From a virus, in IMG/VR virus record IMGVR_UViG_3300042907_001596, positions 1 through 64,000 of that record: DNA of 64,000 nucleotides; one strand, given 5' to 3'. The position numbers and the translations under genes were made by a program. Below are positions 3-28,555 of the stretch, in pieces. Numbering within the stretch: the first letter of the stretch is position 1; every line of letters begins with the position of its first letter. Below the pieces are notes generated by a model. It was not told the DNA's origin, made no database searches, and saw only the letters and a list, made by a program, of their open reading frames with translations.

Positions 3-1409
3 GTCACCGACTCCGACACCTCCAACTCCGCGCTCAACCCCGTCCCCTTCCTCGTCAAGCGGATCAGCACCGGGTACGTCTACCAGGAAGGTTCGGACTA
101 CGAAGTCGTGCTGGACAGCGGCACCGAGGGAACCTCGCAGGCGACCTACCGCATCAAGCGGATCATCGACGGCGACATCGCCGCCGGGGAGGTCGTCCAG
201 GTGTCCTACCGCTACACCGACGACGAGTACTACGCCCCCCAAACCTTCTACGACTACGACGACATCCGCCGGTGGTACGGCGACCCGTTCAACACCAGCG
301 AATACGCCGTCAACGGCGTGGCTAAAGGCAATGTTCTCAGCGAACTGACGCTGGCCGCAAAGTTCGCTTTCCTCAACGGGGCCTACGAGGTGATGACCGT
401 CGCGGTCGACTTCAGTTCCGCCACCACGTCCGTCGCGGCCTACGAAAATGCGCTGGATCTCCTCCAAGACAAAGACAACGTAGCGGTCGTCGTACCGTGC
501 GGCGGCGGCGTGGAGGTTGCCGCGCTGGTCAAAGCCCACATCAAGCAGCAGTCCGAGAACCGCTTTGAGCGGCGGGCCATCATCGGGGTCGACGGCAGCA
601 ACGACACCTTGCGGATCCACAAAGAGCAGCGCCTGCAACTAGCGGCGACGCTGCGCTCCGACGGCAGCGGAGAGCGAGTAGCCCTGGTCAGCCCCGACCG
701 GTTCTCCTACTACAGCCCCGAAGTGAACAAAGAGATCACCGTCGGCGGTCAGTTCATGGCCGCGTCGCTCGCCGGGATGTCCGTCAGGCTGAGCTACGCC
801 CAGCCACTGACTCACAAAGCAGTCACCGGATGGAGGGACGTTCTGACACCCACGAATTACCGCGAGGGCGACAAGAACGACGAGTCCAAAGGCGGCGTCA
901 TGGTGGTGGAAAAGACCCGCAGCCAAAAGATCTGGGTTCGCCATGGCGTCACCGTCGACAACACCGAACTGCTCTACCGGGAGTGGAACATCACCGGCCA
1001 GCAGGACGCCATGGTCTACCGGCTCCGCGACTACCTGGAGAACGCCAACCTCATCGGTCAGCCGATCTACGACTACACCCTGGTCAACGTGAAGGCAGCC
1101 GCTGAAGGTGCCCTCCAGTCGCTGCTGCGCGACGGCTTGATGGTCGACTACACCGGCCTCAAGGCCCGCCAGTTGCTGACCAACCCCGACGTGATTGAGG
1201 TCGGGTTCTCCTGGCTGCCCGCGTTCCCGTTGAACTACATCGTGGTGTCGTTCGCCGTCAGCCTGACGACCGGCAACATCAACAGCCAAGGCGCGACCGC
1301 CAACGGCGGCAACATCGGCAACCTCCAGGCGGGCAACATCACCGCTCCCGCCACCCCGATCTTCAATGACTTCGGCGGTTCGTCCAACACCCTGAACACC
1401 ACACTCTAA
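3..1409 (+). CDS. Tail sheath protein (5' end outside the window)
   Basis: Subunit of the contractile sheath that surrounds the tail tube. The reading frame is already open at the left edge, so the GTG at 108 is internal and the true start lies upstream. The visible ~468 codons have the mixed alpha/beta make-up and C-terminal tube-facing segment of myovirus sheath proteins, and the next gene is a tube-type protein, the usual sheath-tube order. The C-terminal ~40 residues are Asn/Gly/Thr rich. The call rests on overall resemblance and position rather than on a single motif. Confidence 0.82.
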   Translation, partial: VTDSDTSNSALNPVPFLVKRISTGYVYQEGSDYEVVLDSGTEGTSQATYRIKRIIDGDIAAGEVVQVSYRYTDDEYYAPQTFYDYDDIRRWYGDPFNTSEYAVNGVAKGNVLSELTLAAKFAFLNGAYEVMTVAVDFSSATTSVAAYENALDLLQDKDNVAVVVPCGGGVEVAALVKAHIKQQSENRFERRAIIGVDGSNDTLRIHKEQRLQLAATLRSDGSGERVALVSPDRFSYYSPEVNKEITVGGQFMAASLAGMSVRLSYAQPLTHKAVTGWRDVLTPTNYREGDKNDESKGGVMVVEKTRSQKIWVRHGVTVDNTELLYREWNITGQQDAMVYRLRDYLENANLIGQPIYDYTLVNVKAAAEGALQSLLRDGLMVDYTGLKARQLLTNPDVIEVGFSWLPAFPLNYIVVSFAVSLTTGNINSQGATANGGNIGNLQAGNITAPATPIFNDFGGSSNTLNTTL

Positions 1410-10782: not shown

Positions 10783-12978
10783 ATGCTGATTCAGCCACGG
10801 CGGGGCACCGCTGACCAATGGACTTCCGCCAACCCGATCTTGGCCGTCGGGGAGATGGGATATGAAACCGACACTAAAAAGTTCAAGTACGGCGACGGCC
10901 TGACCGCCTGGGCTACCTTGCCGTACGGGATCAGCGCGGCCAACCTGAGCAACGCCACCTCAACCGGCCTTGCCGTCTTGACGGCCAGCAGCGCCGCCGC
11001 AGCGCGTACCGCATTGGGCGTCGGCACCGGCACTTCTGTGCAGGCCGCTGACATTCTGGACTCCACCGCGACCGGCCGCGCCCTGCTGCTGGCCGCGTCG
11101 ACCACTGCGGCTCAGACGGCGCTGGGTGCCACCGCGATCGGCAGGTCGGTGCTGACCTCCGCCGACGCCGCCGCCGTCCGCACGGCGATCAGCGCCGGAA
11201 CCTACTCTAAGCCGGGGACGGGCATCCCATCTACCGACTTCGCTAGCGCCGTCCAGACCAGCTTGGGGCTGGCGAACACCGCACTCCAAGCGGTGGCGTC
11301 CAACCTCATCTCCGACGCCAGCGTTATCGGTAGGTCAATTCTGACCGCCGCCGACGCGGCGGCTGTCCGCAGTGCCATCGGGGCCGGAACCTCTAACGTC
11401 GCGATCGGCACCACCGCCGGAACAGCACTCAGTGGAACGTACGTTCCGACCTCCGCCAGCATCTCCGACTCCACCACGGTGGGACGCGGCCTGCTCACGG
11501 CGGCGACGGCCGAGTCGGCGCGAGCAGTCATCGGAGCCGGAACATCCAACCTGGCGCTGGGGACGACCGCATCCACCGCGCTGGCCGGAAACTATGCGCC
11601 GACCTCGACCAGCATCACCGACGCCACCGCTGTCGGTCGTGGACTGCTGACGGCAGTCGACGCCGCCGCCGCCCGAACACTAATCGGAGCGGGCACCGGC
11701 ACCGGCACCGGCACCATCTCGTCCACCAGCATCTCCGATTCCACCGCCGTCGGCCGATCGCTGTTGACAGCAGCCTCCGCTGCCGCCGCCCTTGCCGCGA
11801 TCGGGGCGGGAACCGGCACCTACTCCAAGCCCGGTACCGGCATCCCTTCCACGGACATGACGACCGCCGTCCAAACCAGTCTGGGCAAAGCCAACACCGC
11901 ATTGCAGACCGTCACGGCAGCCAGCCTCACCGACTCCACCACGGTGGGCAGGGCCGTCCTCGTCGCCGCTGACGCTGCTGCTGCCCGCACCGCCATCGGG
12001 GCGGGCACCTACTCTAAGCCTGGTACCAACATCCCCGCCACCGACCTCGCTACGGCGGTGCAAACCAGCTTAGGTAAAGCCGACAGCGCCATCCAGGCAG
12101 TGTCATCCACAACGATCTCCGACGCCACCGTCGTAGGCAAAGCCCTCATCACCGCCGTCAATGCGGCGACGGCGCTCACGGCGATCGGGGCCGGAACCTA
12201 CTCCAAGCCGACAAACGGCATCCCGGCGACCGACTTCGCGGCGGCGGTGCAAACCAGCTTGGGGTTGGCAAACACCGCACTACAAACGGTGTCCTCCGCC
12301 ACCCTTTCCGATGCGACCGCGATCGGCCGGAGCTTGCTGACGGCCAGCAGCACAGCAGCAGCATTGACGGCGATCGGGGCTGGAACCTACTCCAAGCCCT
12401 CGACGGGAATCCCCTCAACCGACCTGGCGACCTCCGTCCAAACCAGCCTAGGGCTGGCGAACACCGCGTTGCAGACCGCACCGACGATCTCTTCGACCAC
12501 CATTACTGACGCCACCACCGTGGGCAAAGCCCTCATCACGGCGGTCGACGCGGCGACGGCCCGCACCGCGATCGGCGCGGGCACCGGGTCGGGAACCTAC
12601 TCCCGTCCCGCCACCGGCATCCCCTCGACGGATCTTGCCACGGCGATACAGACGAGCCTGACGAAAGCCGACGCCGCCTACACCAGGCCCGCAACGGGCA
12701 TCCCGTCCACCGACCTCACCGCAGCGGTGCAATCCAGCCTGACGCTGGCCAACGCCGCCTACGCCAAGCCGGGTACCGGCATCCCGGCGACCGACCTCGC
12801 AGCGGCAGTGCAGACCAACCTGACGAAAGCCAGTACCGCCCTGCAAGCCATCCCGACCGGCTACGTCGCCGGATCCAGCAACGGCACCGCCACCAACCTC
12901 ACCCTCTGGGTAGGCACCGCTGCGCAGTACACAGCCATCGCCTCTAAGAGCGCAACAACCGTGTATGTGGTGACCTAA
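10783..12978 (+). CDS. Repetitive tail fibre
   Basis: 731 aa. The N-terminal ~50 residues match the phage fibre/hyaluronidase N-terminal module (IQ.RRGTADQW.....L..GE.GYETDT....GDG...W..LPYG), which attaches fibres to the baseplate. The body is built of alternating units: about eleven copies of a VGR.LLTA..AA.ARTAIGAG unit and eight copies of a SKPGTGIPSTDLA.AVQTSL unit. A short C-terminal domain ends at 731. Ala/Thr/Gly content is extreme. Host recognition is the likely role. The ATG follows GAAGGAATGAAG. Confidence 0.85.
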   Translation: MLIQPRRGTADQWTSANPILAVGEMGYETDTKKFKYGDGLTAWATLPYGISAANLSNATSTGLAVLTASSAAAARTALGVGTGTSVQAADILDSTATGRALLLAASTTAAQTALGATAIGRSVLTSADAAAVRTAISAGTYSKPGTGIPSTDFASAVQTSLGLANTALQAVASNLISDASVIGRSILTAADAAAVRSAIGAGTSNVAIGTTAGTALSGTYVPTSASISDSTTVGRGLLTAATAESARAVIGAGTSNLALGTTASTALAGNYAPTSTSITDATAVGRGLLTAVDAAAARTLIGAGTGTGTGTISSTSISDSTAVGRSLLTAASAAAALAAIGAGTGTYSKPGTGIPSTDMTTAVQTSLGKANTALQTVTAASLTDSTTVGRAVLVAADAAAARTAIGAGTYSKPGTNIPATDLATAVQTSLGKADSAIQAVSSTTISDATVVGKALITAVNAATALTAIGAGTYSKPTNGIPATDFAAAVQTSLGLANTALQTVSSATLSDATAIGRSLLTASSTAAALTAIGAGTYSKPSTGIPSTDLATSVQTSLGLANTALQTAPTISSTTITDATTVGKALITAVDAATARTAIGAGTGSGTYSRPATGIPSTDLATAIQTSLTKADAAYTRPATGIPSTDLTAAVQSSLTLANAAYAKPGTGIPATDLAAAVQTNLTKASTALQAIPTGYVAGSSNGTATNLTLWVGTAAQYTAIASKSATTVYVVT
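10959..12852 (+). repeat. Fibre-coding tandem repeats
   Basis: The DNA encodes about eleven LLTA-type and eight KP-type modules, not strictly alternating. Modules near the middle (11390-11700) carry variant linkers in place of the KP unit. Repeats are diverged at the DNA level but conserved in protein, indicating old duplication under selection. They are possible sites of unequal recombination that would change fibre length. Confidence 0.85.
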
Positions 12979-13627: not shown

Positions 13628-14044
13628 GTGACGTACAGCCTTGCCGTGGTAGACGGCGATCTTGCCCAGCAGGGAAGTTCACTGGCGATCGTCTACGGCG
13701 TCGACAAGCTCCGGCAAGACCTCACCTTGTGGATGACTGAACGGCGCGGCATCGACCGCTTTCATCCCACAATGGGGACTATCCTGCCCGACTTCATCGG
13801 CTCGCTGATTGTCGAATCGACCAAGACCCTCATCCAAGGGGAAGTCCTAAGAGTTCTCCAGGGCTACCAGGCATACCGACTGTACGAGTTCAAGCGTGCC
13901 CCGCAGAACTTCAGCTACTCCGAAATGCTGTATTCAATCAACGCTATCGACGTGGCACTATCATTTGACACGGTGTACGCCTCCATTAAGGTCAGTGCGC
14001 TCGACGGAACCCCTTCGGCAGTGGCGGTGGCGCAAAGTGTCTAA
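13628..14044 (+). CDS. Baseplate wedge protein, gp25/gpW-like
   Basis: 138 aa from GTG 13628 behind GAGGAGGAAATA. Size and order (immediately before a J-like and an I-like protein) match P2 gpW / T4 gp25, the sheath initiator of contractile baseplates. The family-typical T.E.RG....P..G block appears as TERRGIDRFHPTMGTILPD (residues ~38-56). The start inside the earlier long open frame was chosen for its ribosome site. Confidence 0.82.
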   Translation: MTYSLAVVDGDLAQQGSSLAIVYGVDKLRQDLTLWMTERRGIDRFHPTMGTILPDFIGSLIVESTKTLIQGEVLRVLQGYQAYRLYEFKRAPQNFSYSEMLYSINAIDVALSFDTVYASIKVSALDGTPSAVAVAQSV

Positions 14045-15869
14045 AACTCCCGCCGACATCTCATCGGCCATCCTGGCAACCTTGGCGACGACCGCGCCGG
14101 GACTCTCGTGCGAACTGGGCACCCCCGAACGCAAAATCATCGACGCCTGCTCCGAAGCGATCAGCGCCGCCTACATCGACCAGTATCTCGTCGGCAGCCT
14201 GCTCGACATGGACACCAAGGTGGGCTTGGAGTTAGAGCAATTCGTCGGGATCTTCGGCTTCGGTCGGCTGCAAGGCAGGAGTGCCGTCGGCGTGGTGCGG
14301 ATCAGCATGACCACCCCCAGCACGATCGACACCCAGATTCCTATCGGCACCCAATTCTTCGCCAGGCCGGGAACCTCTGGGGTCAATGGGAACCTGCGTT
14401 TCGCCACTACCGCCCAGGCTGTGCTGCTGGCCGGAACCTACAGCCTCGACATCCCCGTCAGTTGTACCGAATCCGGTACCATCGGCAACCTACCTCCCGA
14501 CTCCATCGTCTCGACCGGCACGATGATCGGATCCTCATCGGTCACCAACCTTGCCGCCATGACCGGCGGCGTCGACACCGAATCTGACGCCGCGCTGCGG
14601 CAACGCTTTAAGGACACGCTGCTGCGCAACGTCTCCGGCACCCGCGACTGGTACCTCTCGCTGTGTCTTCTGAGCAACAGCGTATCCCGCGCTACCGTCG
14701 TCGGGCCGGTGTCGAAGTACTCCACTCAAATCGAAGTCCCTGCCGCCGGTGCCTCCTTGACCGTGCCGGTCGCTGAAGTTAAGTATGTATGGAAAGATTC
14801 CGCCAGCGTCTTCATCAACTTAGGGCAAAAATCCGACCTGCCCGAAGAAGATGAAAGGTTCTACATCCCCGGCTCCGACTTCACCTTATCCAGCGGCACC
14901 ACCACCGCGCCGACCTTCACCCGCACCACCGGAAGCCTGCTCACTGATGGCCAGGTGGTCGACTTAGAGTTCCAATACACCTCCCGGTCGTCGCGCAACG
15001 ACCCGGCCAACAACAAAACCAATAAGGTTGATGTGTTTGTCGACGGCATCGACCCCATGCCGGTAGCCGAGCAGACCGTGCTGGGGCAGACCGGGGTGAG
15101 CACCACCGCGCTGATGACCAACCTCGCCAGCGACACGCTGTACTACAAAAACTTTGAGCGGGTCGGCCCCAGCACCGACCCGGTCGTGGGGAGCCGGTTT
15201 ATGCGGCTAGGCAGCGTGCCGGTGGTGTCATTCCCGTCGGCGCTGACCATCAACGGCAAAGTGTACCGCGAAGGCGACGACTACTATCTGATCCGCAGCA
15301 CCCTCAAAAACGTCCTCAACGAGACGACGCTACTGACCGGATCCCACCGGGAAATCGCCGGTGTGGAGTGGCCAACCGGTAAAGGCCCCAGCCAAGCCAA
15401 CGGCACCCCCATGACCGTCGTCTTCGTCTACAACCGGGTGCCCGAAGTGCTGTACACCACCATCTCCCAAACAAAGCAAATCGCCACCGACGTGCTGGTG
15501 CATCAAGCGGACTACCAGTACATCCAGCCGTGCTTGTCGATCGAATACGACAAGGCATACCAGCGGTCGGTGGTAGACATCGCCATCACCGACAGATTGA
15601 AGAAGTACTTCCAAGGCCAAGGCTTCGGCCAGTCCATCAAGCTGTCCAACATTTGCATGGCCGTACAGCAAGTCATCGGCGTGATCGACGTGAAAGTCAC
15701 GACCTCAGCGGAAGCCACCGCCCGCAACTGGGCGCACTACGGCATCAGGCTGTACAACAACTCCTCCGACACCGTGCCGGACTACATCAAGACTGAAGAC
15801 TTCACGCTGGCAGAGAGCCAGGTGCTGATGTACTACGGGGTGAAGCTGCTACGGAGGGCCACCACCTAA
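14037..15869 (+). CDS. Baseplate J-like protein (wedge, gpJ/gp6 family)
   Basis: 610 aa from GTG 14037, overlapping the gp25-like stop by eight bases. The centre carries family features: the hydrophobic EL/EQF..IFGF.R..G..A.G.VRI segment (~residues 60-85), the I.IGT.F region (~100) and the GVDTESD..LR.R motif (~178-188) of baseplate J proteins. It forms the wedge ring that triggers sheath contraction. Longer than P2 gpJ (~300 aa) because of inserted beta-rich segments after residue 220. Confidence 0.85.
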   Translation: MSKTPADISSAILATLATTAPGLSCELGTPERKIIDACSEAISAAYIDQYLVGSLLDMDTKVGLELEQFVGIFGFGRLQGRSAVGVVRISMTTPSTIDTQIPIGTQFFARPGTSGVNGNLRFATTAQAVLLAGTYSLDIPVSCTESGTIGNLPPDSIVSTGTMIGSSSVTNLAAMTGGVDTESDAALRQRFKDTLLRNVSGTRDWYLSLCLLSNSVSRATVVGPVSKYSTQIEVPAAGASLTVPVAEVKYVWKDSASVFINLGQKSDLPEEDERFYIPGSDFTLSSGTTTAPTFTRTTGSLLTDGQVVDLEFQYTSRSSRNDPANNKTNKVDVFVDGIDPMPVAEQTVLGQTGVSTTALMTNLASDTLYYKNFERVGPSTDPVVGSRFMRLGSVPVVSFPSALTINGKVYREGDDYYLIRSTLKNVLNETTLLTGSHREIAGVEWPTGKGPSQANGTPMTVVFVYNRVPEVLYTTISQTKQIATDVLVHQADYQYIQPCLSIEYDKAYQRSVVDIAITDRLKKYFQGQGFGQSIKLSNICMAVQQVIGVIDVKVTTSAEATARNWAHYGIRLYNNSSDTVPDYIKTEDFTLAESQVLMYYGVKLLRRATT

Positions 15870-17227
15870 TGGCAAGTCAAAATCCGTTCCCACTGATGCC
15901 GCCGATCTCGACGGAACTGCGGCTGGCTCACTTCGATGAGCAGATCTATCGGGGCACCTCCGAAACGCTGCTTTACAAGTATGTCGACGCCATCTGCGGA
16001 ACTACCGGCGTCGGCGCACTGCTCAACGAAGCCTTTTTGGCGCGGCTATCCACGGCGCTGGAAACCATCTACTTCAACGACCTCGACTATATTTTCGGCA
16101 AGATCAGGTTTCTCTCTCGCTCCCCGGCGGAAAGCTACTCCTACAACCCGATGAAAGACATGCTGACCTCCGACCAATGGTCGGAAGTCAAAGTCAAAGA
16201 CACTTGGTACCGGGAGCGGATCCGCAACTTCTTCGTCGGGGCATCACTAGGCGGCACCCCCGAAGGGGTCAAGATGATCGTCCAAGCCGCGCTGGGTGTG
16301 GACTGCACCATCTTGGAGTCGTGGCGTTACATTGACAACTTCGGCCTGACCAACTCGCTGGGGCGGGCCAACGCCCGCAACGAGATCACCATCCGGCCGA
16401 AGGGCAAAGCCTACCTGCTGCCCGAAGAGTGGCGGCTGGTGCGGGATATGCTCGACAAAGTCTGCCCGGTCGAAACGATCGTCACCATCAACATCAACGG
16501 ACTGTCCGACCTCACCCCCGTCCGCATCTCTGCGGCGGCGTCGAACTCTACTTACTACGAAGTCGTCAAGTCGATCAAAGCCACCCCAGTCATCAAGACG
16601 ATCACGTCGGCAGCCGACCTCAACCTCACCTCCTCCGACCTCAACAGCAGCCACTTCTGGCTCTTCGACGCCACCACCGAAGCGCAAGAAGCCCCGTACG
16701 CCGCCTTCAACATCACGTCGGAATACGGCTACTACTACCTCGTCGGCGGCGGGGAAAGAAGCCCGATTGACAACGTCACCTACGGCACCCTCAAAGCTGA
16801 CGGCGAAGTGACGACCGAATCGAACTTTGAGGTACACCAAAACAGCGGAGCCTTCACCGACTGGTACAGCTACGAGCTAGCCGACTGCCCCCAAAACTTC
16901 CCCGGCGGAAAGTTTGGCTTAACCCCCACCAGGCTCCCCGCCCTCAACCCCGACCGCACGCCCTACAAGTTTCCGTGGGCCAGCCAGTTGGCGTTCATTG
17001 AAGAGAAGATCAACGAAATCCTCAAACTGGGCGGTATCGCAGACGCCATCCGCTATCGACTGCCACTGACCGCCTCCCGCAGCCCCAAGACGACCTATTT
17101 CCCCGAGTATGCCGTGGCCTACTCCGCTCCGTCGCAGGAATCAACGGTGTCCACCGGCATCACCACCCGACGACCGGCTACTCTTGCCAGTGACTGGGCC
17201 GACACAAATGCTTATGTGAGCAGGTAA
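15869..17227 (+). CDS. Baseplate wedge protein, gpI-like
   Basis: 452 aa, TAATG overlap with the J-like gene. It stands where P2 gpI lies and begins with the LPP-type short leader and an amphipathic N-terminus. The PHP-like middle contains GTPEGVKMIVQAALG (~residues 128-142), which resembles tail-protein-I segments. The C-terminal half is beta-rich with many aromatics and may hold the fibre attachment. Its stop overlaps the next start. Confidence 0.65.
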   Translation: MASQNPFPLMPPISTELRLAHFDEQIYRGTSETLLYKYVDAICGTTGVGALLNEAFLARLSTALETIYFNDLDYIFGKIRFLSRSPAESYSYNPMKDMLTSDQWSEVKVKDTWYRERIRNFFVGASLGGTPEGVKMIVQAALGVDCTILESWRYIDNFGLTNSLGRANARNEITIRPKGKAYLLPEEWRLVRDMLDKVCPVETIVTININGLSDLTPVRISAAASNSTYYEVVKSIKATPVIKTITSAADLNLTSSDLNSSHFWLFDATTEAQEAPYAAFNITSEYGYYYLVGGGERSPIDNVTYGTLKADGEVTTESNFEVHQNSGAFTDWYSYELADCPQNFPGGKFGLTPTRLPALNPDRTPYKFPWASQLAFIEEKINEILKLGGIADAIRYRLPLTASRSPKTTYFPEYAVAYSAPSQESTVSTGITTRRPATLASDWADTNAYVSR

Positions 17228-20200
17228 TGGCTACCGACGGTATGTTCTACGAGTTCCACATCCCGCTGGGACTCTACGATGCGATCCAAACGCTGCTCCG
17301 TCAGCAGCAGGCATCCCCTAACACCCCGAACGTCATCACCCCACCGACGACGGATCGGCAATGGTTCTCCCAGCCCCGATCGGCCGTCCAGGGCGAAATC
17401 ACCAAGCCCACTTTTTTCCACGCAGTCGGCATCTCGCATCTGTTCAGCCTCTTTGGGGTGGGGATCGCCAACGTCGGCGGCGGAAGCACACTCACCGTCC
17501 CCGGCGTCAACGGCAAAACCTACACCTGGAACGGTGCCCCCGGCACCGACCCCTTCCCGGCGATGGTGGACACCACCTACTGGAACGTCAAGACGGTTCA
17601 ATACTCCGCCTCCGCCTTCCCTTACCTCCAAAGCCTCGCGGCGGGAGCCGAAGCGGTCGTCGCGGCGATCAAAGCCACCCCCGGCAAGTTCGCGTTAGGC
17701 GGCTACGGCTTAGGCGCAGCCGTGATGTCGCGGGTCTGGGACGAAATCCAGTACGGCACCCTCGCCAGCCGCAAAAACGACCTGATCGCCGCAGTCACCT
17801 TCGGCTCGCCCGCCAGAGCGGCATCCCACCTGTGGCCGGGGGCCACCCCGATTGGATCGTGGGATGCCCCGTCCACGACCACCGGCAGCCACGGCGTCTT
17901 CCCGTCGGATCGGCGGATGACCTCCACTCCCGCTGTGTGGTGGGATTTTGCCAACTCCGACGACGTGTTCTCGTCCGTCGGCAACACCACCGCCGGGGCC
18001 AACTTGTCGGCGCTCACCGCCGTGCTCACCCAAACTTTCACCGGCAAAGACCTGCTGGCCTTCATCTCCACCAACCTCCTGAACCTGCCGTGGGACACCA
18101 TCACGTCGGCGGCGTCGACCATCAGCCAAGTCACCGACATCTTAGGATCCGACGGCGGCGGGCACAGCACTTACGCCACATCGCCCCCGACCGGCAATCC
18201 GCAAAATGGTCTGACCAGCTACCAGATCGCTCTCAACTACCTGAACACCGTCGGCAAGGACTACCAGGCCAGCCGCACCTTCGGCAACACCACCGAAGTG
18301 GTGCAAGTCAACTTCAAAATGCCGATGCCGATCAACGACCTGGCGTTCCAAGCCGTGCAGGTGCCCGTCACCATCGAAGCCTGGTACAAAGACCGCTACA
18401 ACAACTGGCGGGCCATGCTGGACGACAACCGAGTCCCCATCAAAGTCAACCTGTCGCGGGCCACCACCGAAAAGTGGTACGCCTACCGCGCCGACGTATC
18501 CCCGATCGTCGCCCAAGCGATCCAACTACGGCTGACGAGGGTCTACGACTCCGGCGTCGGCAACACGGCGTACTGCGTCGGCATCCGCAACCTACTGGCG
18601 AGGCGCAACATCTATTCGCGTCCGGCCGGGATCATGGCTACGACCATCACTGAAGACGCAATGGGCAACGTCGTGGAAACCACCATCAAAGACTGGGATC
18701 CACCCCAAGCGATCGACAACAACCCCGGCACGTTCTGGAAGTCGGCGGCGATGCCCGACCCCGACGCGGTGGCCTACTTGTGCTTGGATGTCCGCGACAG
18801 CGACGGCACCGCCAAGCTCATCGACACGCTCTATCTAGATCCGGTCTACACCGGAAACTCCATGAACCTGTACTACTCCAACGACGACCTCAACAGCACG
18901 CTGCGGCTCTCGCCTATCTCGCTGCGCCCCACGACGGCACCTTCCGGCACGACGTGGAAGATAAATAAAGGCTTGTCCGACATCACCACAGGAACCTCCG
19001 CCTCAACATGGTCGGCCCCTTTCCGAATCGGCCCGCAAGTACGCCGGGACGCTTGGATCGGGATCGAATGGGCACCCAACTTCAGTTCCGCCGCGCCGCC
19101 CGCCAACAACCCGGTACTCTTTGAGGTCACCCCGTCGGGGGCCAAGCCGGGACAGTTCTGGCCCCGCGTCTACTACCAAACCTCCCCGTCGCGGCTCGTG
19201 CTGGAGTTCACTAACGGCACCTCCACCCCCTACCAGTTCGTTGCACCGTTCAGCACGACCTTCGCGGCGGGCACCACCTTGAGGATCGTCGCCGGGTGGG
19301 CATACAACATGCCGGGGGAAGCGGTTGTCGTGTCGGTCTGCAATCAGAACGGCACCGAAATTGCGGCGTTCACGACTTCGTCCGTCGTAGACATCCCCGA
19401 ACTCATCACCTTCGACGGCAAGGTGGGATTCTCCCGGTTCAAAGGTTTATTGACGGCGCACGTCGTCAAGCTGGCGTCGTGGACGGACTCTAGCGGCAAA
19501 GCCGACTTCCAAGCCAACCCGATGTCGTTTGTCGACCCAGAGCCGACCATCCCCGACGCCGACGGACAGATCGGATCCAGCAGCCTGGACAACGCGGTGC
19601 TGTCGTGCGACTGGACGACCCAGCAGTACCCAATCGGCGGCAGCCACACCAGCGCCCACGCCGACCGCAAATGGGTGCCGGTGTGGCGCGATTACGTCAC
19701 CAAAAAGGGGAAGATGTTTTTGCCCCACCAGATCCGAGCGCAATACCTCAAGCTGGAGTTCTCCAAGCTCACGCCCGAGCCGTACCCGATCTACGACACC
19801 GGCATCCAAGTCACCTACGAAACCTTCCCCGTCTCCGTCTACGGCGACTACAAAAGCACGACCACCATCACCAACACCGTTAACCGGCGAGTCCCCGGCC
19901 TGCTGGAAAATGTCGGTGACGCCACCACGCAGTTCGTCGGCAACGCCATCGGCACCATCACCGGGGCGGCGGACGCAATCGGCGGAGCCGTCAACGGTGT
20001 GCTGGGGAAAATCGGCAGCCTTGTGGGGGGAATCTCCAGCGTCAACTGGCTCGACACGACCTCCATTAGGGCGGCAATCGAAGCGCCGTTCACCGCCGTC
20101 GCGCAGCCCATCGTCGCCGCGCTGGGCTACAGCAACCCTATCCAAAGCCTGCCGAACACACTGCTGTCTGCGGTATCGACCGTTAGCAACACTTTCATGT

Positions 20201-22986
20201 CGACATCGAACGCCAGCAACACCCTGACTTCCGTGTCGTCCATCGGGACGGCAGCAATTCAAGCCGCCACCGCCACTTCCGCCGTCACCCCCAGCACGCT
20301 GGCGGCGGCGAGGGCATCCAACCGGCAACTCAGCATCAACCTCCCGGCAAGAACGGTCAACCCGCGACTGCCGCGAGTCAACATCGCTAACACCCTCAAC
20401 AACGCCACCAAAACGCTAACCTCGTCGCTGGCCGGACTGATCAACACCGGATCTCCACTCGTCAGTGCTGGCTCGTCGGCGCTGAGCGTGATCCGGCAAG
20501 AGATGACGAGCAGCCTCGTCCACCGTCGGCCGCTGCTGGATGTCATCACCTTGGCGAAGCAGTCAATAAACACCCTGTTGGGTACCGATGTGCAGCAAGT
20601 CGTGGAGAAAATCATCCCCCCGCCGCTCATTAAAGCAATCGAAAGCGCCTTCTCCCCGTCGACAACGACGACATCAGTTGCTTCCCCCACCCGCCGTCCG
20701 GTGGCGCTACCCCCGTCTAGGGTCAACAACGCCATCCTGCCAACCCAAGGCACCGACAAATGGCTATTCCCCGGCGGCAACCTCACTATGCCTGCGGCCG
20801 TAATGAACGGACTAACCGGCCTAACCCAAACGGTGCTGGGCTACAACACCTCCACCACGACGGCCAGCAGCACCTCCACCACCCGGCGGGTGCGCTTTGA
20901 GACGACGGAAACGCACATCTACCGCAAGCTCGTCGCCAACCGGGATGCCGCGATCGGCTACTTCGCCGGGATCCGCGAGGTCGCCGCTTACAGCACCGCG
21001 TACGTCGACAACGAAGACCCCGTCTCGTTCCACTTCGACCTGTACGACAAGACCCAGTGGGCGTTCAGCAGCAACATCCAAACGCTGTCGGCTACCGGCG
21101 GCGGCTACGCCGGGGTGACCGCCCAGCCGATGCTGTACGCCAACGCCGACATCGACTTCGCCCTCGACCTGGACGCCTGGACGAAGACCGGCGCGTGGAC
21201 GTGGGACAACAGCCAGGACGGCTACACCGGCAACCGGATACAGGCCGCGAAGCTCACCCCCGCCGCTGGGGCGGCTGCCACCATCGTGGCCAGAGACACC
21301 ATCGACGTAACCGCCGGGGATGTCCTGGTGGTGTCCGGCTTCACGAAGTACATCAACGCCAACCTCACCAACGTCGCCACCAACCCCAGCTTTGAGGACA
21401 CCACGCTGCTCGTCGGCAACAACGGCGGGACGTACTCCACCGAGCAGGCCCGCACCGGAACCCGCTCCCTCCGGCTGGTCAGCAACGGCACCGCCCGCTA
21501 CTCGTATATCGCCCCTGACGCCACCACTACCACCACCTTCATCCCATCGGTGGCGGGCGATGTGTGGTATGTCGAAGGGTATGTTTACGGCAAGTCCGGT
21601 GTTGGCGGCAACACCCAGACCACCGGTGGTGCTAACGCCATCCAGATCGGTCTGACCGGGTTCAACTCCGGCGGAGGATTTCTCACCAACGTCGTTACGA
21701 GCATCACCGCCGACGCCTCACGCAAGGGTGTATGGACGAAAATATCGGGATACCTCACCGCTCCGACCAACACCGTTTCCATTGCCCCTTTCGTGCAGAT
21801 CACGTCGGCCGTCACCTCCGGCGACACCTATTACTTCGATGACGTAGTGGTACGCCGCGCCGGGAAGATCACGCTGGATCTGGTGACCTACAACAGCGCC
21901 GGAGTCGCGACCGGGTCGGCCGCACTGACCGCCGTGCCGTCCACCACCGCCGGTGTCCCCGCCACCATCACCAGCCTGACGGACGTATACAAAAACACCG
22001 ACGGGGTGACCTTCACCGAACTGAAAGGCACCTACACCGTCCCCGGCTCCGGCGTGAGCGCGGTCGCGGTGAGATACACCGTCTCCAACGTGGACGGCGG
22101 TTCGGTGTGGGTTGCGGAATCCAAAGTGGTGCCGTCGGACATCGCGAAGCGTCGCGGGACTTTGTACTCTCGCTTCGTTACGACCTCCGACTTCTCCAAG
22201 GTGGTCTGCGACTTCCGCGACACCGGCGCGATGAGGTCGGACGCGATGTGGGCACGGATGGATCCGTTCAACACCGCCATCGACAAGACCAAGTTGACGT
22301 GGTACACGACGCCGTCCACGATGCCGCCGGGGATGTGGGGTGACACCTTCGCGGACTGGGCCGATGAGAACGTCAAGTGGGGTAACGCCGAAGCGACGGT
22401 GGCGATCATCGTGGATCCCAACCGGGTCTACAAAGGCAATCGGGTGCTGCGCTTCATGCGCGGAGCCAGCGCCGGACAGGCTGGGGTCACCGTAGTGCAA
22501 CGCACCAACTACGTCCCCGGCTGCCTCGCCCGCATCAGCGCGGTGTTCTACAAGCCCGAAGCCAACACCAACTCCATCAAGGTGTCGTTGCGCCGGATTA
22601 GTGACGGCGTCTACATTTACGGTGGGGCCATTGACGAAGGCATCATCCCCGACCCCGACATCGGCCGGTGGTACACCTACACCAGTCCGTGGTTTGAGAT
22701 CCCGTCCTCCCTCGACCAGGCGTACACCGTCGGCTTCTACAGCAGCGGCTCCGACGCCGAAGAACTTTACCTGTCGGATCTATACACCGAAACGACCCAC
22801 GTTCGGTACCACATGCAATTGGGCGGCAGCAGTTCTTATTCGTTCGACGTGACCGGCGCGGCGATGACGACCGACGCGATCGTCACCGCAACCAGCCCGG
22901 TCAAAGAGATGGCGATCAACGTAACCGTCCTGTCGGATCGGGTCGCGGCGTTCGGGGCAACCGTCACCCCGGTGTACCTCAAGTAG
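17227..22986 (+). CDS. Giant tail protein with inactive LysB-like domain and carbohydrate-binding-like modules
   Basis: 1,919 aa. Residues ~1-345 resemble the two LysB-like proteins at 25686 and 27398: the same TPGKFAL segment, nucleophile-elbow helix and LNYLN end. The elbow reads G159-Y-G161-L-G163, so Gly161 stands where the catalytic Ser should be. Residues ~350-900 contain beta-sandwich segments with discoidin-like features. Residues ~920-1220 are Ala/Ser/Thr-rich and helical. From ~1365 onward there are repeated CBM-like jelly rolls (for example NPSFED...GTRSLRL). Probably the distal adhesin that binds the mycolate/arabinogalactan envelope without cutting it. Confidence 0.75.
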   Translation: MATDGMFYEFHIPLGLYDAIQTLLRQQQASPNTPNVITPPTTDRQWFSQPRSAVQGEITKPTFFHAVGISHLFSLFGVGIANVGGGSTLTVPGVNGKTYTWNGAPGTDPFPAMVDTTYWNVKTVQYSASAFPYLQSLAAGAEAVVAAIKATPGKFALGGYGLGAAVMSRVWDEIQYGTLASRKNDLIAAVTFGSPARAASHLWPGATPIGSWDAPSTTTGSHGVFPSDRRMTSTPAVWWDFANSDDVFSSVGNTTAGANLSALTAVLTQTFTGKDLLAFISTNLLNLPWDTITSAASTISQVTDILGSDGGGHSTYATSPPTGNPQNGLTSYQIALNYLNTVGKDYQASRTFGNTTEVVQVNFKMPMPINDLAFQAVQVPVTIEAWYKDRYNNWRAMLDDNRVPIKVNLSRATTEKWYAYRADVSPIVAQAIQLRLTRVYDSGVGNTAYCVGIRNLLARRNIYSRPAGIMATTITEDAMGNVVETTIKDWDPPQAIDNNPGTFWKSAAMPDPDAVAYLCLDVRDSDGTAKLIDTLYLDPVYTGNSMNLYYSNDDLNSTLRLSPISLRPTTAPSGTTWKINKGLSDITTGTSASTWSAPFRIGPQVRRDAWIGIEWAPNFSSAAPPANNPVLFEVTPSGAKPGQFWPRVYYQTSPSRLVLEFTNGTSTPYQFVAPFSTTFAAGTTLRIVAGWAYNMPGEAVVVSVCNQNGTEIAAFTTSSVVDIPELITFDGKVGFSRFKGLLTAHVVKLASWTDSSGKADFQANPMSFVDPEPTIPDADGQIGSSSLDNAVLSCDWTTQQYPIGGSHTSAHADRKWVPVWRDYVTKKGKMFLPHQIRAQYLKLEFSKLTPEPYPIYDTGIQVTYETFPVSVYGDYKSTTTITNTVNRRVPGLLENVGDATTQFVGNAIGTITGAADAIGGAVNGVLGKIGSLVGGISSVNWLDTTSIRAAIEAPFTAVAQPIVAALGYSNPIQSLPNTLLSAVSTVSNTFMSTSNASNTLTSVSSIGTAAIQAATATSAVTPSTLAAARASNRQLSINLPARTVNPRLPRVNIANTLNNATKTLTSSLAGLINTGSPLVSAGSSALSVIRQEMTSSLVHRRPLLDVITLAKQSINTLLGTDVQQVVEKIIPPPLIKAIESAFSPSTTTTSVASPTRRPVALPPSRVNNAILPTQGTDKWLFPGGNLTMPAAVMNGLTGLTQTVLGYNTSTTTASSTSTTRRVRFETTETHIYRKLVANRDAAIGYFAGIREVAAYSTAYVDNEDPVSFHFDLYDKTQWAFSSNIQTLSATGGGYAGVTAQPMLYANADIDFALDLDAWTKTGAWTWDNSQDGYTGNRIQAAKLTPAAGAAATIVARDTIDVTAGDVLVVSGFTKYINANLTNVATNPSFEDTTLLVGNNGGTYSTEQARTGTRSLRLVSNGTARYSYIAPDATTTTTFIPSVAGDVWYVEGYVYGKSGVGGNTQTTGGANAIQIGLTGFNSGGGFLTNVVTSITADASRKGVWTKISGYLTAPTNTVSIAPFVQITSAVTSGDTYYFDDVVVRRAGKITLDLVTYNSAGVATGSAALTAVPSTTAGVPATITSLTDVYKNTDGVTFTELKGTYTVPGSGVSAVAVRYTVSNVDGGSVWVAESKVVPSDIAKRRGTLYSRFVTTSDFSKVVCDFRDTGAMRSDAMWARMDPFNTAIDKTKLTWYTTPSTMPPGMWGDTFADWADENVKWGNAEATVAIIVDPNRVYKGNRVLRFMRGASAGQAGVTVVQRTNYVPGCLARISAVFYKPEANTNSIKVSLRRISDGVYIYGGAIDEGIIPDPDIGRWYTYTSPWFEIPSSLDQAYTVGFYSSGSDAEELYLSDLYTETTHVRYHMQLGGSSSYSFDVTGAAMTTDAIVTATSPVKEMAINVTVLSDRVAAFGATVTPVYLK

Positions 22987-25685: not shown

Positions 25686-27398
25686 ATGCCGCCCGCCTAC
25701 CGGCTTTACACCTTCGGTGGCACCGGAAACCTTAGCGTCGCGCTGGGGAAGACGGCCGTCGACCCCACTTACAGCACGGCGTCCGTCGACTACTCCCAGG
25801 CGGGCTACGGAGCGCAGATCGCCCAAGGAGTAAACCCCCGCCAGGTGGAGTGGGTGCCGGTGGCGTACGCCGCAGCGGCCTACCCGATGAATGTGTCCGT
25901 AGCGACCGCAGTCAACCGCACCGTCTCTATGATCCTCGCCAACCCCGGCAAGATCTTCCTGGCAGGAACCAGCCAGGGTGCGTACGTCACCAGCCAGCTT
26001 TGGCGGGAGTTCACCACCGGCCGTCTGGTGAGCCGCCGTGCCGACCTCGTCCGCATCTACCACTACGGCAACCCGCTGCGCCAAGCCAAGATGTTTCGCG
26101 GCACCCGTAACCCCGGTGGGCACGGCTGCGCCGCAGCGAACCTTCGGCTGACCAACACCGACCCGGCTGTCGTGTGGGAGTTTGCCAACCCCGGCGACCC
26201 GGTGGCAATCCAGTTTGACGACCAAAAGGGCACCTGGGCAGCGAGCTTCTTCGGCATCCTCAACCAGAACGCGACCAGCGTCTCGACGCTGGCGGCGCAG
26301 ATCTCCACGCTGCTCCTCAAACCCAACGCCAACCTATCCACGCTGGTGTCGCTCATCAACGACTTGATCAACAACATGCTCAACCAGACCGGCAAGCACA
26401 ACGCCTACCAGAACTTCTTCCCGTTCGGGGGGACGAAGAGTTCCGTGCAACTGGCGATAGACGACATCGCCACCATCGTCGGCGCACCGTCATCGAAGAC
26501 CCGGCATTACATTGCAATCCCTCCGGCGCTGTCGGTTGACGACCTCACGAAGACCTGCACCGGCATCAAAAACCTCAACATCGGATCGGTGCGGATCCCG
26601 GTGCCGTGGGGGGCAGCGCAGACTTCCGCGACGACCTTCGCGTGGACACCTTTCGACCAAGCCGTCAACGCCGCCCTCACCGCCGGACTGCGGATCCTGC
26701 TGGTGATCGCCCCTACCCGGCCGGAGTGGGCGACCGTCGCTACGTCCAACCTCAGCTTCGGCACCTTTGCCGCTGCTGTTGTGTCCCGCTACCGCCCCGG
26801 CGGCACCGGGGTCATCGCCAGCAACGCCGGGAAGGGTGCGGAGGAGTACCAAGTTTGGGACGAGCCGAACGTCATTGAGAACCTAACGACCGGCGATAAT
26901 CCAACCGCGTCAGGCTACGTCGCTTACCTTCGGGAAGCGTACGTCGCCATCAAGCGAGAGCAGCCAACCGCCACGGTGGTATTCGCCGGACTCCAAGCCT
27001 GCACCACCCAAACAATCGCCGCTGCCCGCCGGGTATCCCGCGCCGCCCTGACAACTTCCGCCAACATCGACCCCGTTACTTTCCTCACCGACTGCTACGC
27101 CGCCGGGGCAAAGCCTTTCTTCGATGTGATGGCCTACCATCCGCTGTCGATGGCGACTCGACAGAAACCTCAACCGCCCGCGCCGAGCGTCAACCTCATC
27201 GCCCAGTCCGACAGCATCAACGCCCTGATGGTGGCGAAGGGCGACGGCACCAAGCCGATGTACTGGACGCAAGTCGGCTACAACACCGCACTGATCACCC
27301 AAACCCAGCAGCAGGCATACCTGGACACGATGCGGTGGCTGGCGCACGAACGCACTTATGTGACCGGCATGGTCGTATCGGGATACCGGGATTTCTGA
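25686..27398 (+). CDS. LysB-like esterase fused to a glycoside-hydrolase-like domain
   Basis: 570 aa. Residues ~1-275 are an alpha/beta-hydrolase of the cutinase/LysB type: elbow GTSQG with Ser96, candidate Asp171 (NPGDP) and His238 (GKHN). LysB cuts the ester between mycolic acid and arabinogalactan in Corynebacteriales. Residues ~285-570 resemble a clan GH-A TIM barrel: WDEPN holds the candidate acid/base Glu393, but the nucleophile strand reads YWTQVG, with Gln529 at the expected Glu. The barrel may be a binding domain. No signal peptide. The stop overlaps the next LysB-like gene. Confidence 0.75.
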   Translation: MPPAYRLYTFGGTGNLSVALGKTAVDPTYSTASVDYSQAGYGAQIAQGVNPRQVEWVPVAYAAAAYPMNVSVATAVNRTVSMILANPGKIFLAGTSQGAYVTSQLWREFTTGRLVSRRADLVRIYHYGNPLRQAKMFRGTRNPGGHGCAAANLRLTNTDPAVVWEFANPGDPVAIQFDDQKGTWAASFFGILNQNATSVSTLAAQISTLLLKPNANLSTLVSLINDLINNMLNQTGKHNAYQNFFPFGGTKSSVQLAIDDIATIVGAPSSKTRHYIAIPPALSVDDLTKTCTGIKNLNIGSVRIPVPWGAAQTSATTFAWTPFDQAVNAALTAGLRILLVIAPTRPEWATVATSNLSFGTFAAAVVSRYRPGGTGVIASNAGKGAEEYQVWDEPNVIENLTTGDNPTASGYVAYLREAYVAIKREQPTATVVFAGLQACTTQTIAAARRVSRAALTTSANIDPVTFLTDCYAAGAKPFFDVMAYHPLSMATRQKPQPPAPSVNLIAQSDSINALMVAKGDGTKPMYWTQVGYNTALITQTQQQAYLDTMRWLAHERTYVTGMVVSGYRDF

Positions 27399-28555
27399 TG
27401 ACACAAAACAGCTACGGACTCTTTGACTCCAACTACGCCGCTAAGAAAGCAGCAGCATCGGTAGCCCGATGGAATGACGGCGTGAAGCGCCACACCCTTT
27501 ACACGGTGTGCGGCACCACCCAAGACGGCTGGGGCATCGTCAACATCCCGTACGAAGCCGAAGCCAAAGCGGCGCTCTACAAGCTGTACTACTCAATCGG
27601 AGGCACCGATCCTCCGCCGGTGGATGGAGAGCGCGGCCCGAACATCAACCTCATCAACACCGATGCCGTCGTCGGGGTGTACGCCGACCCGGCGCTGTTC
27701 AACTGGGTGCCGGTGAGCTACCCGGCGTCGATGCCGACTGGTGCGGGCCTTCTCGACAACGACTGGCAGCCGCAGAACATCTCTTTCCTCGACTCTGTCA
27801 CGCTGGGCGTGAAGGAACTGACCAGCCTAATCTTAGCCACACCGGGAACCTTCGCTCTGGTGGGAATGAGCCAAGGAGCGATGGTCATCACCAAAGTTTT
27901 GCACGCGATGATGACGCCGGGGACGGCGCTGTCAGCGCGGATGGGGGACTGCATCGCCGGGTTGGCATATGGAAATCCGCACCGCAAGCCGGGGGCGTCT
28001 TTCACCGGCGGCACCCACCTCAAGCTCAACGTCGGCGGGGTGAGTTATGTCGGCGGCGGGCTGTTCTCGTCGGCACCTCCCGCCACCACCCCGGCCGCTC
28101 TCGCCCAGAACATGCTGCTAGGAAATGGCAGTGTCACCACCCCCGACTGGTGGTGGGAAATGTGTACACCCAACGACTTCTTTGCCGACTCCCCGATCAC
28201 CACAATCGCCGGTGCGGTGATGGGAGAGATTGCCCGCGTCGCCGTCGGCATCAGGGGCGGCATTGACCCAATGGAGATGATGAGAAACATCGCGGGTGCG
28301 TTCCTCAAGCCGGGTGCGATCACCTGGGATGGATTTGCCTCGCTGCTCCAGACGCTGTCGCAGCCGAAAGTCACTAAGGTCATCACCGACTGGCTGGGGG
28401 CGTTCTCCGCACCGACACCGAACCCGCACATCTTGTACGGGGTGCTCTCGCCGCCGACCCTGCCGACCGGGCTGGGCCTCGCGCCGAAAGCAACGTACCA
28501 CGAAGTCGGCGTCGCTTACATGAACGCACGCGGCAGAGCTATCGCCCCGCGTTAG
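27398..28555 (+). CDS. LysB-like mycolyl-ester hydrolase
   Basis: 385 aa from ATG 27398 (TGATG overlap). Elbow FALVGMSQGAM gives Ser158. Candidate Asp260 (TPNDFF) and His344 (NPHILY), or a later His near residue 369, complete a triad. The N-terminal ~110 residues include a peptidoglycan-binding-like segment starting with YGLFDSNYAAKK. With an intact GxSxG and size near known LysB proteins, this is the best candidate for the phage lysin B. No lysin A was recognised in the window. Confidence 0.8.
   Translation: MTQNSYGLFDSNYAAKKAAASVARWNDGVKRHTLYTVCGTTQDGWGIVNIPYEAEAKAALYKLYYSIGGTDPPPVDGERGPNINLINTDAVVGVYADPALFNWVPVSYPASMPTGAGLLDNDWQPQNISFLDSVTLGVKELTSLILATPGTFALVGMSQGAMVITKVLHAMMTPGTALSARMGDCIAGLAYGNPHRKPGASFTGGTHLKLNVGGVSYVGGGLFSSAPPATTPAALAQNMLLGNGSVTTPDWWWEMCTPNDFFADSPITTIAGAVMGEIARVAVGIRGGIDPMEMMRNIAGAFLKPGAITWDGFASLLQTLSQPKVTKVITDWLGAFSAPTPNPHILYGVLSPPTLPTGLGLAPKATYHEVGVAYMNARGRAIAPR

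What the first reader, a model, noticed from the sequence alone, without database searches (positions are those of the whole stretch)
17227..18270. LysB fold without its nucleophile inside a giant tail protein
Seen: residues ~1-345 match the two downstream LysB-like proteins in order of motifs, but the elbow GxSxG is G-Y-G-L-G (Gly161). Known: the Ser is essential for cutinase/LysB activity. Inference: an old lysis enzyme copy was recruited as a mycolate- or arabinogalactan-binding adhesin on the virion, giving a direct receptor-type explanation for host range.
Basis: partly seen in the sequence, partly recalled or inferred. Interest (0 to 1): 0.72.

Follow-up and report, generated by a model that had tools for sequence, protein, structure and literature searches.

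The report
Dead enzyme module in phage tail
A protein at the tip of this phage's tail carries a built-in copy of an enzyme fold that normally cuts the waxy coat of mycobacteria and their kin, but here the cutting residues are gone while the rest of the fold is kept, so it probably grips the coat rather than cuts it.

Summary
ORF 17227-22986 is the 'minor tail protein' (phrog_2840) that follows baseplate J and a gpI-like gene in I3/Bxz1-type contractile phages. About 290 aa of it (aa 60-348, not 1-345) are a LysB-like alpha/beta hydrolase, inserted within a CBM32/discoidin-like beta-sandwich. The insertion is absent from 36 of 36 aligned relatives and present in one other virus (L161), which keeps the serine. 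The nucleophile is Gly161 (GYGLG). Loss reaches both oxyanion-hole positions (T to I69, Q to L162) and GNP (GSP); Asp246 and His313 remain, and 35 of 37 other conserved columns are kept. Most members keep Ser; nucleophile loss is seen again in L165 (S to G, H to N). Best reading: a virion-borne mycolate-esterase module that here became a non-cutting binding module. Fold, insertion, clade and residue loss are computed here; binding is inference.

The parts
17227..22986 (+). Large baseplate/minor tail protein, 1919 aa (phrog_2840 family)
   Evidence: phrog_2840 E 0, 4 stretches; 42-49% identity to relatives over aa 351-875
17227..17382 (+). aa 1-52: conserved N-terminus of the family (helix, then R-x-W-F-S-Q-P-R strand), not LysB
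   Evidence: alignment with 7 named phages and 29 IMG/VR loci; helix 14-27, strand 45-47 in model
17404..18270 (+). Inserted LysB-like alpha/beta-hydrolase domain, aa 60-348
17431..17433 (+). Ile69 at the oxyanion-hole position T12 of D29 LysB
   Evidence: T12/Q83 named as oxyanion hole in PMC7022511
17707..17712 (+). Gly161 (GGC) in place of the nucleophile Ser82, and Leu162 in place of oxyanion Gln83
17803..17811 (+). GSP in place of the GNP motif (Ser194)
17962..17964 (+). Asp246, retained catalytic acid position (D166 of D29 LysB)
18163..18165 (+). His313, retained catalytic base position (H240 of D29 LysB)
17353..17367 (+). aa 43-47: first strand of the host beta-sandwich, before the insertion
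   Evidence: VIA-align rows 43..461 against CBM32/discoidin-like folds, Z 8.3-10.3 over 94-113 residues
18292..18612 (+). aa 356-462: rest of the CBM32/F5-8C-like beta-sandwich, after the insertion
   Evidence: Pfam F5_F8_type_C sub-threshold on aa ~488-552 (E 0.015, a later stretch)
15869..17227 (+). Upstream gpI-like virion protein (DUF7297, phrog_2813)
13896..15869 (+). Baseplate J protein (homologs align from aa 48, so the gene start is probably near 14037)
   Evidence: phrog_6 E 6e-64; alignments
25686..27398 (+). LysB-like domain with Ser (GTSQG) fused to a PslG-like glycosidase-type domain
   Evidence: phrog_102 E 5.9e-31; PDB 3hc7 E 0.00093 and PslG E 0.85
27398..28555 (+). LysB-like protein with Ser (GMSQG)
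   Evidence: phrog_102 E 3.3e-31

Best explanation
The domain is a member of a tail- and baseplate-borne LysB-like alpha/beta-hydrolase clade of phages with mycolic-acid hosts. Members probably act as virion esterases that cut ester-linked mycolates at entry. In this phage lineage the module was inserted into a loop of a CBM32-like carbohydrate-binding domain of the baseplate protein, and later lost its nucleophile and oxyanion residues while the fold, Asp and His were kept. It most likely now binds mycolylated envelope glycolipid or arabinogalactan without cutting, helping the baseplate to hold the cell surface. Shown by computation: fold, insertion, clade, residue loss, retention of the rest. 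Inferred: the virion position (by homology and gene order), ancestral esterase activity, present binding role, ligand.
For: Precise insertion between conserved flanks in 36 of 36 aligned relatives lacking it; one relative, L161, with the same insertion site (RQWLSQPRSAVDGG) and Ser. Fold: 3hc7 Z 19.4. Clade 100/99. Selective loss: 4 of 7 active-site columns lost against 2 of 37 other conserved columns, one-sided Fisher 0.0034, while the other ten clade members lose 0-2. Insertion lies in a CBM32/discoidin-like fold. Second tail-type case with Gly elbow and H to N, L165. Envelope lipids as phage receptors: GPLs implicated for I3 (PMC9262239 passages), mycolic acids needed by corynephage CL31 (PMC9671496 passages).
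Against: No binding or virion data exist. Asp and His are still there, which a pure adhesin would not need. Q to L occurs in Ser-bearing L164, and N to S in Ser-bearing L100, so these two losses alone do not prove inactivity. The Fisher test was chosen after seeing the sequence. Only one genome carries this dead form; no near relative was found. Named phages of the family infect without the domain.
Confidence: 0.55

Rival explanations
1. Passenger or spacer: after losing its enzyme function the domain persists only because it does not harm baseplate assembly, or serves as a structural spacer, with no ligand.
For: The family works without it (36 of 36 aligned relatives); nothing shows a ligand.
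Against: 35 of 37 non-active-site conserved columns are kept and the frame is intact over about 290 aa, unlike free decay; GC3 of the insert equals that of the gene (0.845 against 0.832), so it is not a very fresh arrival by that sign.
Confidence: 0.2
2. Still an enzyme: Asp246-His313 activate water or another residue acts as nucleophile, so the domain hydrolyses esters in an unusual way.
For: Asp and His are retained.
Against: Nucleophile and both oxyanion-hole positions are changed; no [GA]x[SCTD]x[GA] elbow elsewhere in a fitting place; Ser is described as absolutely conserved in LysBs (PMC6116114, PMC7022511 passages).
Confidence: 0.1
3. Sequence error or minority variant: the virus population has AGC (Ser) at codon 161 and the contig shows GGC.
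For: One base separates GGC from AGC; a single metagenomic record, no second copy found.
Against: Three further active-site positions in the same domain also differ (I69, L162, S194), which one error cannot explain.
Confidence: 0.06
4. Division of labour: the dead domain is a docking or regulatory partner for the Ser-bearing LysB-like proteins encoded 3-5 kb downstream, which ride on the virion and cut.
For: P0003 and P0004 lie outside the lysis-type clade in the tree, with L164, L166 and stand-alone relatives, and are the only other LysBs in the record.
Against: No sign of interaction; at least one of them is needed for lysis if the record is complete.
Confidence: 0.09

Closest known systems
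D29 LysB (gp12, PDB 3hc7), mycolylarabinogalactan esterase
   Same: Same fold (Z 19.4); Asp and His positions kept; GxP motif kept as GSP
   Different: Ser82, T12 and Q83 replaced by Gly, Ile, Leu; part of a tail protein, not a lysis gene; tree places it outside the lysis clade
phrog_2840 minor tail protein of Bixzunavirus I3, Phrappuccino, Skog, Pupper, Phabba, Rhodococcus phages E3 and Finch
   Same: Same gene order and 42-49% identity over aa 351-875
   Different: None of the 7 examined has the LysB-like insertion
L161 (IMG/VR 3300033067_000130) tail protein
   Same: Same protein, same insertion site, same LysB-like domain (42% identity)
   Different: Elbow GFSMG keeps Ser; a beta-lactamase-type domain (PF00144, E 1.9e-42) sits inside the LysB-like domain with its SxxK reading GITF
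L165 (IMG/VR 3300032893_000011) 775-aa protein
   Same: LysB-like domain with Gly elbow (GHGVG)
   Different: Also His to Asn; carries a PE-PPE domain with GDGLG and DUF7172
Virion-associated lysins such as the TM4 tape-measure lysozyme motif
   Same: Envelope-enzyme module on a tail protein
   Different: Those cut peptidoglycan; here a mycolate-esterase fold lacking its nucleophile (PMC6116114, PMC6116005 passages)

Membership tests
LysB (mycolylarabinogalactan esterase) | alpha/beta-hydrolase fold of the LysB/cutinase type | tested here: met
   3hc7 Z 19.4 over 219 residues; phrog_102 E 8e-27
LysB (mycolylarabinogalactan esterase) | GxSxG elbow with nucleophile Ser | tested here: not met
   GYGLG, Gly161
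LysB (mycolylarabinogalactan esterase) | Catalytic Asp and His | tested here: met
   D246, H313 aligned with D166, H240
[quoted passage not shown]
   I69, L162
LysB (mycolylarabinogalactan esterase) | Groups with lysis LysBs | tested here: not met
   18 lysis rows on one side (98/95), the domain on the other
LysB (mycolylarabinogalactan esterase) | Esterase activity on mycolyl-arabinogalactan | not testable with these tools
   needs protein
phrog_2840 baseplate/minor tail protein | Conserved sequence and gene order after baseplate J and gpI-like gene | tested here: met
phrog_2840 baseplate/minor tail protein | Presence in the virion | not testable with these tools
   inferred from homologs' annotation only
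CBM32 / F5-8C (discoidin) domain for aa 43-47 + 356-462 | Discoidin-like beta-sandwich fold | tested here: met
   VIA Z 8.3-10.3, rmsd 2.0-4.5, 84-113 residues, against several CBM32 and related chains; moderate Z
CBM32 / F5-8C (discoidin) domain for aa 43-47 + 356-462 | Pfam PF00754 above its cut-off | tested here: not met
   sub-threshold only, and on aa 140-204 of the query, outside 356-462

The most novel reading that the evidence does not exclude
Tail proteins of mycolata phages repeatedly take up envelope-cutting serine hydrolases (LysB, PE-PPE, DD-peptidase types) and strip the nucleophile, turning each enzyme's pocket into a receptor-binding site: a general route by which these phages make adhesins for the mycolic-acid envelope, of which this insertion is the clearest case.
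Probability: 0.35. Interest if true: 0.75.

Novelty: new variant of a known kind. Interest (0 to 1): 0.6.

Why it matters
Receptors and receptor-binding parts of mycobacteriophages are little known (PMC9262239 passages). A fold whose ligand is known (mycolate ester of arabinogalactan), found on a baseplate protein with its cutting residues removed but its shape kept, makes a named ligand testable with one purified domain. It also points to an undescribed clade of tail-borne LysB-like domains that could be entry esterases, and to nucleophile loss arising more than once among them.

Tried and rejected
Near-DNA match of 15000-22986 in named phages: none. Close relatives of the 348-aa region in IMG/VR by single protein: none confirmed of 138 stretches. 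PDB by sequence with P0005: none at E up to 1; with the tail-domain profile A1: none at 0.1. GMA5 ORF15, annotated 'putative structural protein', was checked as a possible tail LysB; it is a small stand-alone protein with GYSQG. Alignment A8, meant for a model with its flanks, was misaligned and not used; A14 replaced it after a column check. Relatives of L165 in IMG/VR: only itself. Genome contigs gave one locus, a Dehalococcoidia MAG contig, 30%, Ser present, so no host could be named. Pfam on aa 1370-1559, which looked like a carbohydrate-binding insert: no match.

Rejected: that the match covers aa 1-345 (aa 1-52 belong to the tail family); that the insert derives from the neighbouring LysB genes (window copies are farther than tail copies: 28-31% and 22-29% against 39-46% for tail fusions); simple sequencing error as the whole story.

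Limits of the counts. One search kept the best 80 of 188 LysB loci, so '80 of 80' is of those kept. One search shows 29 of 29 loci; several are the same phages as the 7 (E3, Skog, Pupper, Phabba, Phrappuccino among them), so the 36 are alignments, not 36 distinct viruses. The 16 tail/baseplate domains come from 14 loci in 13 records; L167 and L168 are near copies; 0 of 3018 named records cover 80% of one tail fusion (L159); this does not exclude other fusions in named phages, and 60 of 1334 records were looked at (59 annotated lysin B/endolysin/LysB, 1 structural). In some searches and 122 row L161 was cut to start after its nested domain, so its missing G and T count there as lost though the full protein has T; its true active-site loss is Q to M. 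A test that all 15 tail/baseplate rows form one clade gave p-AU 0.0736: not rejected, not shown. L165 joins the 11-row clade at 85/87 only. One row, L163/L149b, was started at an inner Met.

Two mycobacteriophage cryo-EM papers were searched for enzyme words and gave nothing useful. The phage behind PDB 9d93 was not identified.

Full report
What is there. The window is the first 64,000 bases of a 150,440-base IMG/VR virus record. ORF 17227-22986 encodes 1919 aa. It matches phrog_2840, 'minor tail protein', and follows a baseplate J gene (13896-15869, phrog_6) and a gpI-like gene (15869-17227, DUF7297/phrog_2813). The same order is found in Phrappuccino, Skog, Pupper, Phabba, I3, E3 and Finch. 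No named phage is near at DNA level.

The LysB-like domain is an insertion. Aligned with the seven named relatives, aa 1-52 of the window protein are the family's own N-terminus, ending in R-x-W-F-S-Q-P-R; the family resumes at ...NTTEVVQVNFKMP near aa 355; between them the relatives have only a few residues. All 29 IMG/VR loci found with the tail domain show the same uninterrupted junction.

Fold. With LysB rows as alignment, AlphaFold2 gave mean pLDDT 73.8 and pTM 0.76 for aa 56-350. Foldseek's best PDB match is D29 LysB 3hc7, E 1.1e-7; VIA-align gives Z 19.4, rmsd 4.0, 219 residues, then Rv3802c and cutinases. A second model of aa 1-498, built with tail relatives and close homologs, has mean pLDDT 74.7, pTM 0.59. 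In it strand 155-160 runs into helix 162-176 with Gly161 at the turn, where the nucleophile sits in this fold. In that model aa 43-47 and 356-462 together match CBM32/discoidin-like sandwiches (Z 8.3-10.3 over 84-113 residues). The hydrolase therefore sits in a loop of what looks like a carbohydrate-binding fold. The Z values are moderate, and Pfam's F5/8 type C hit is below its cut-off and elsewhere.

What is lost and what is kept. [quoted passage not shown] The GNP motif is GSP; Asp166 and His240 are Asp246 and His313. Ser is present in 80 of 80 viral LysBs kept from 188, and two reviews' passages call it absolutely conserved. Among columns at least 90% conserved in the other ten members of its clade, the window lost 4 of 7 active-site columns and 2 of 37 others (one-sided Fisher 0.0034); the other members lost 0-2 active-site columns. 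The test was chosen after seeing the sequence. Against over-reading: Q to L is also in Ser-bearing L164 and N to S in Ser-bearing L100. The pattern fits loss of catalysis with the fold maintained better than general decay or a single base error.

Where it comes from. Three relatives of the tail protein carry stand-alone LysB-like genes just upstream of baseplate J: L149 (two), L150 (one gene, two domains), L151. Their best match among window proteins is the inserted domain, not P0003 or P0004. A scan with this set found 14 loci. Several are tail proteins with an N-terminal LysB-like domain followed by Sipho_Gp37/phrog_110 (L158, L159, L164, L166) or other minor-tail families (L156, L157). L161 is the same phrog_2840 protein with the same insertion site and elbow GFSMG. 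The tree puts the window domain in an 11-row clade with L156-L159, L161 and the baseplate genes (100/99), apart from 18 lysis LysBs (98/95); the window's own P0003 and P0004 lie in neither tight group. Two relatives with baseplate copies also have a lysis-type LysB elsewhere (G023 at 95187, G026 at 2156). The simplest order is: virion recruitment of a Ser-bearing module, insertion into the baseplate protein before the split from L161, then nucleophile loss in the window lineage.

Is it a one-off? Of 16 domains at the 14 loci, 15 keep Ser; L165 has GHGVG and Asn at the His column. L165 also has a PE-PPE domain (PF08237, E 5e-17) whose elbow reads GDGLG, and the isolated M. smegmatis phage StAugustine has a protein of the same PE-PPE-DUF7172 make-up with Gly in that place by my alignment, while Nibb gp97 has GFSQG. 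In L161 a DD-peptidase/beta-lactamase-type domain nested in the LysB-like domain reads FRIGGITFSF where the R61 enzyme reads FRVGSVTKSF, so its SxxK is gone. These are few and partly hand-aligned cases, but all are serine hydrolases of envelope chemistry in or near tail genes that lack the nucleophile.

How it most likely works. Shown by computation: fold, place, clade, residue loss. Inferred: the protein is in the baseplate, by homology and gene order; Ser-bearing relatives cut mycolate esters at entry; the window domain keeps a pocket for the same kind of ligand and holds rather than cuts. Support from elsewhere is general: glycopeptidolipids are implicated as I3 receptor, mycolic acids are needed for corynephage CL31. 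Confidence 0.55 in the binding role; the domain's identity is close to certain. Rivals are a passenger or spacer (0.2), unusual catalysis (0.1), docking partner (0.09), sequence artefact (0.06).

Verdict. It is not filed as a LysB, since the nucleophile was tested and not met; it is a LysB-fold pseudoenzyme domain within a phrog_2840 tail protein. No earlier description was found in the searches named under Tried and rejected, which cover open PubMed Central papers only.

Noticed in passing
window 25686-27398: LysB-like domain (GTSQG) fused to a PslG/GH39-like domain (WDEPN; PslG E 0.85). A later YWTQVGYNT may be the nucleophile site with Glu changed to Gln; that reading is recalled, not tested.
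   Followed up: partly
L161:4348-10311: Beta-lactamase/DD-peptidase domain nested inside a LysB-like domain that is itself inserted in the tail protein; its SxxK motif is lost. Best PDB match is 'Tail wing base, gp30' (9d93).
   Followed up: partly
L165:4378-6702 and L171:5830-7494 (StAugustine gp42): PE-PPE plus DUF7172 proteins near tail genes whose PE-PPE elbow has Gly where Ser is expected.
   Followed up: partly
L156, L157, L158, L159, L164, L166, L167: Minor tail proteins of other uncultivated phages with an N-terminal LysB-like domain that keeps Ser: possible virion mycolate esterases.
   Followed up: partly
window 20,000-20,800 and 21,400-21,900 (inside the tail gene): Two further stretches longer than in the relatives, one low-complexity and Ser/Thr-rich, one with NPSFE and YFDDV motifs; Pfam finds nothing in the second.
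   Followed up: partly
window 10783-12978: 731-aa tail fibre-like protein made of about ten repeated units (phrog_5711, 10 stretches).
   Followed up: no
L172: A contig binned as Dehalococcoidia (a MAG) encodes a baseplate-type LysB-like protein with Ser next to large repetitive ORFs; probably a phage contig in the wrong bin.
   Followed up: no
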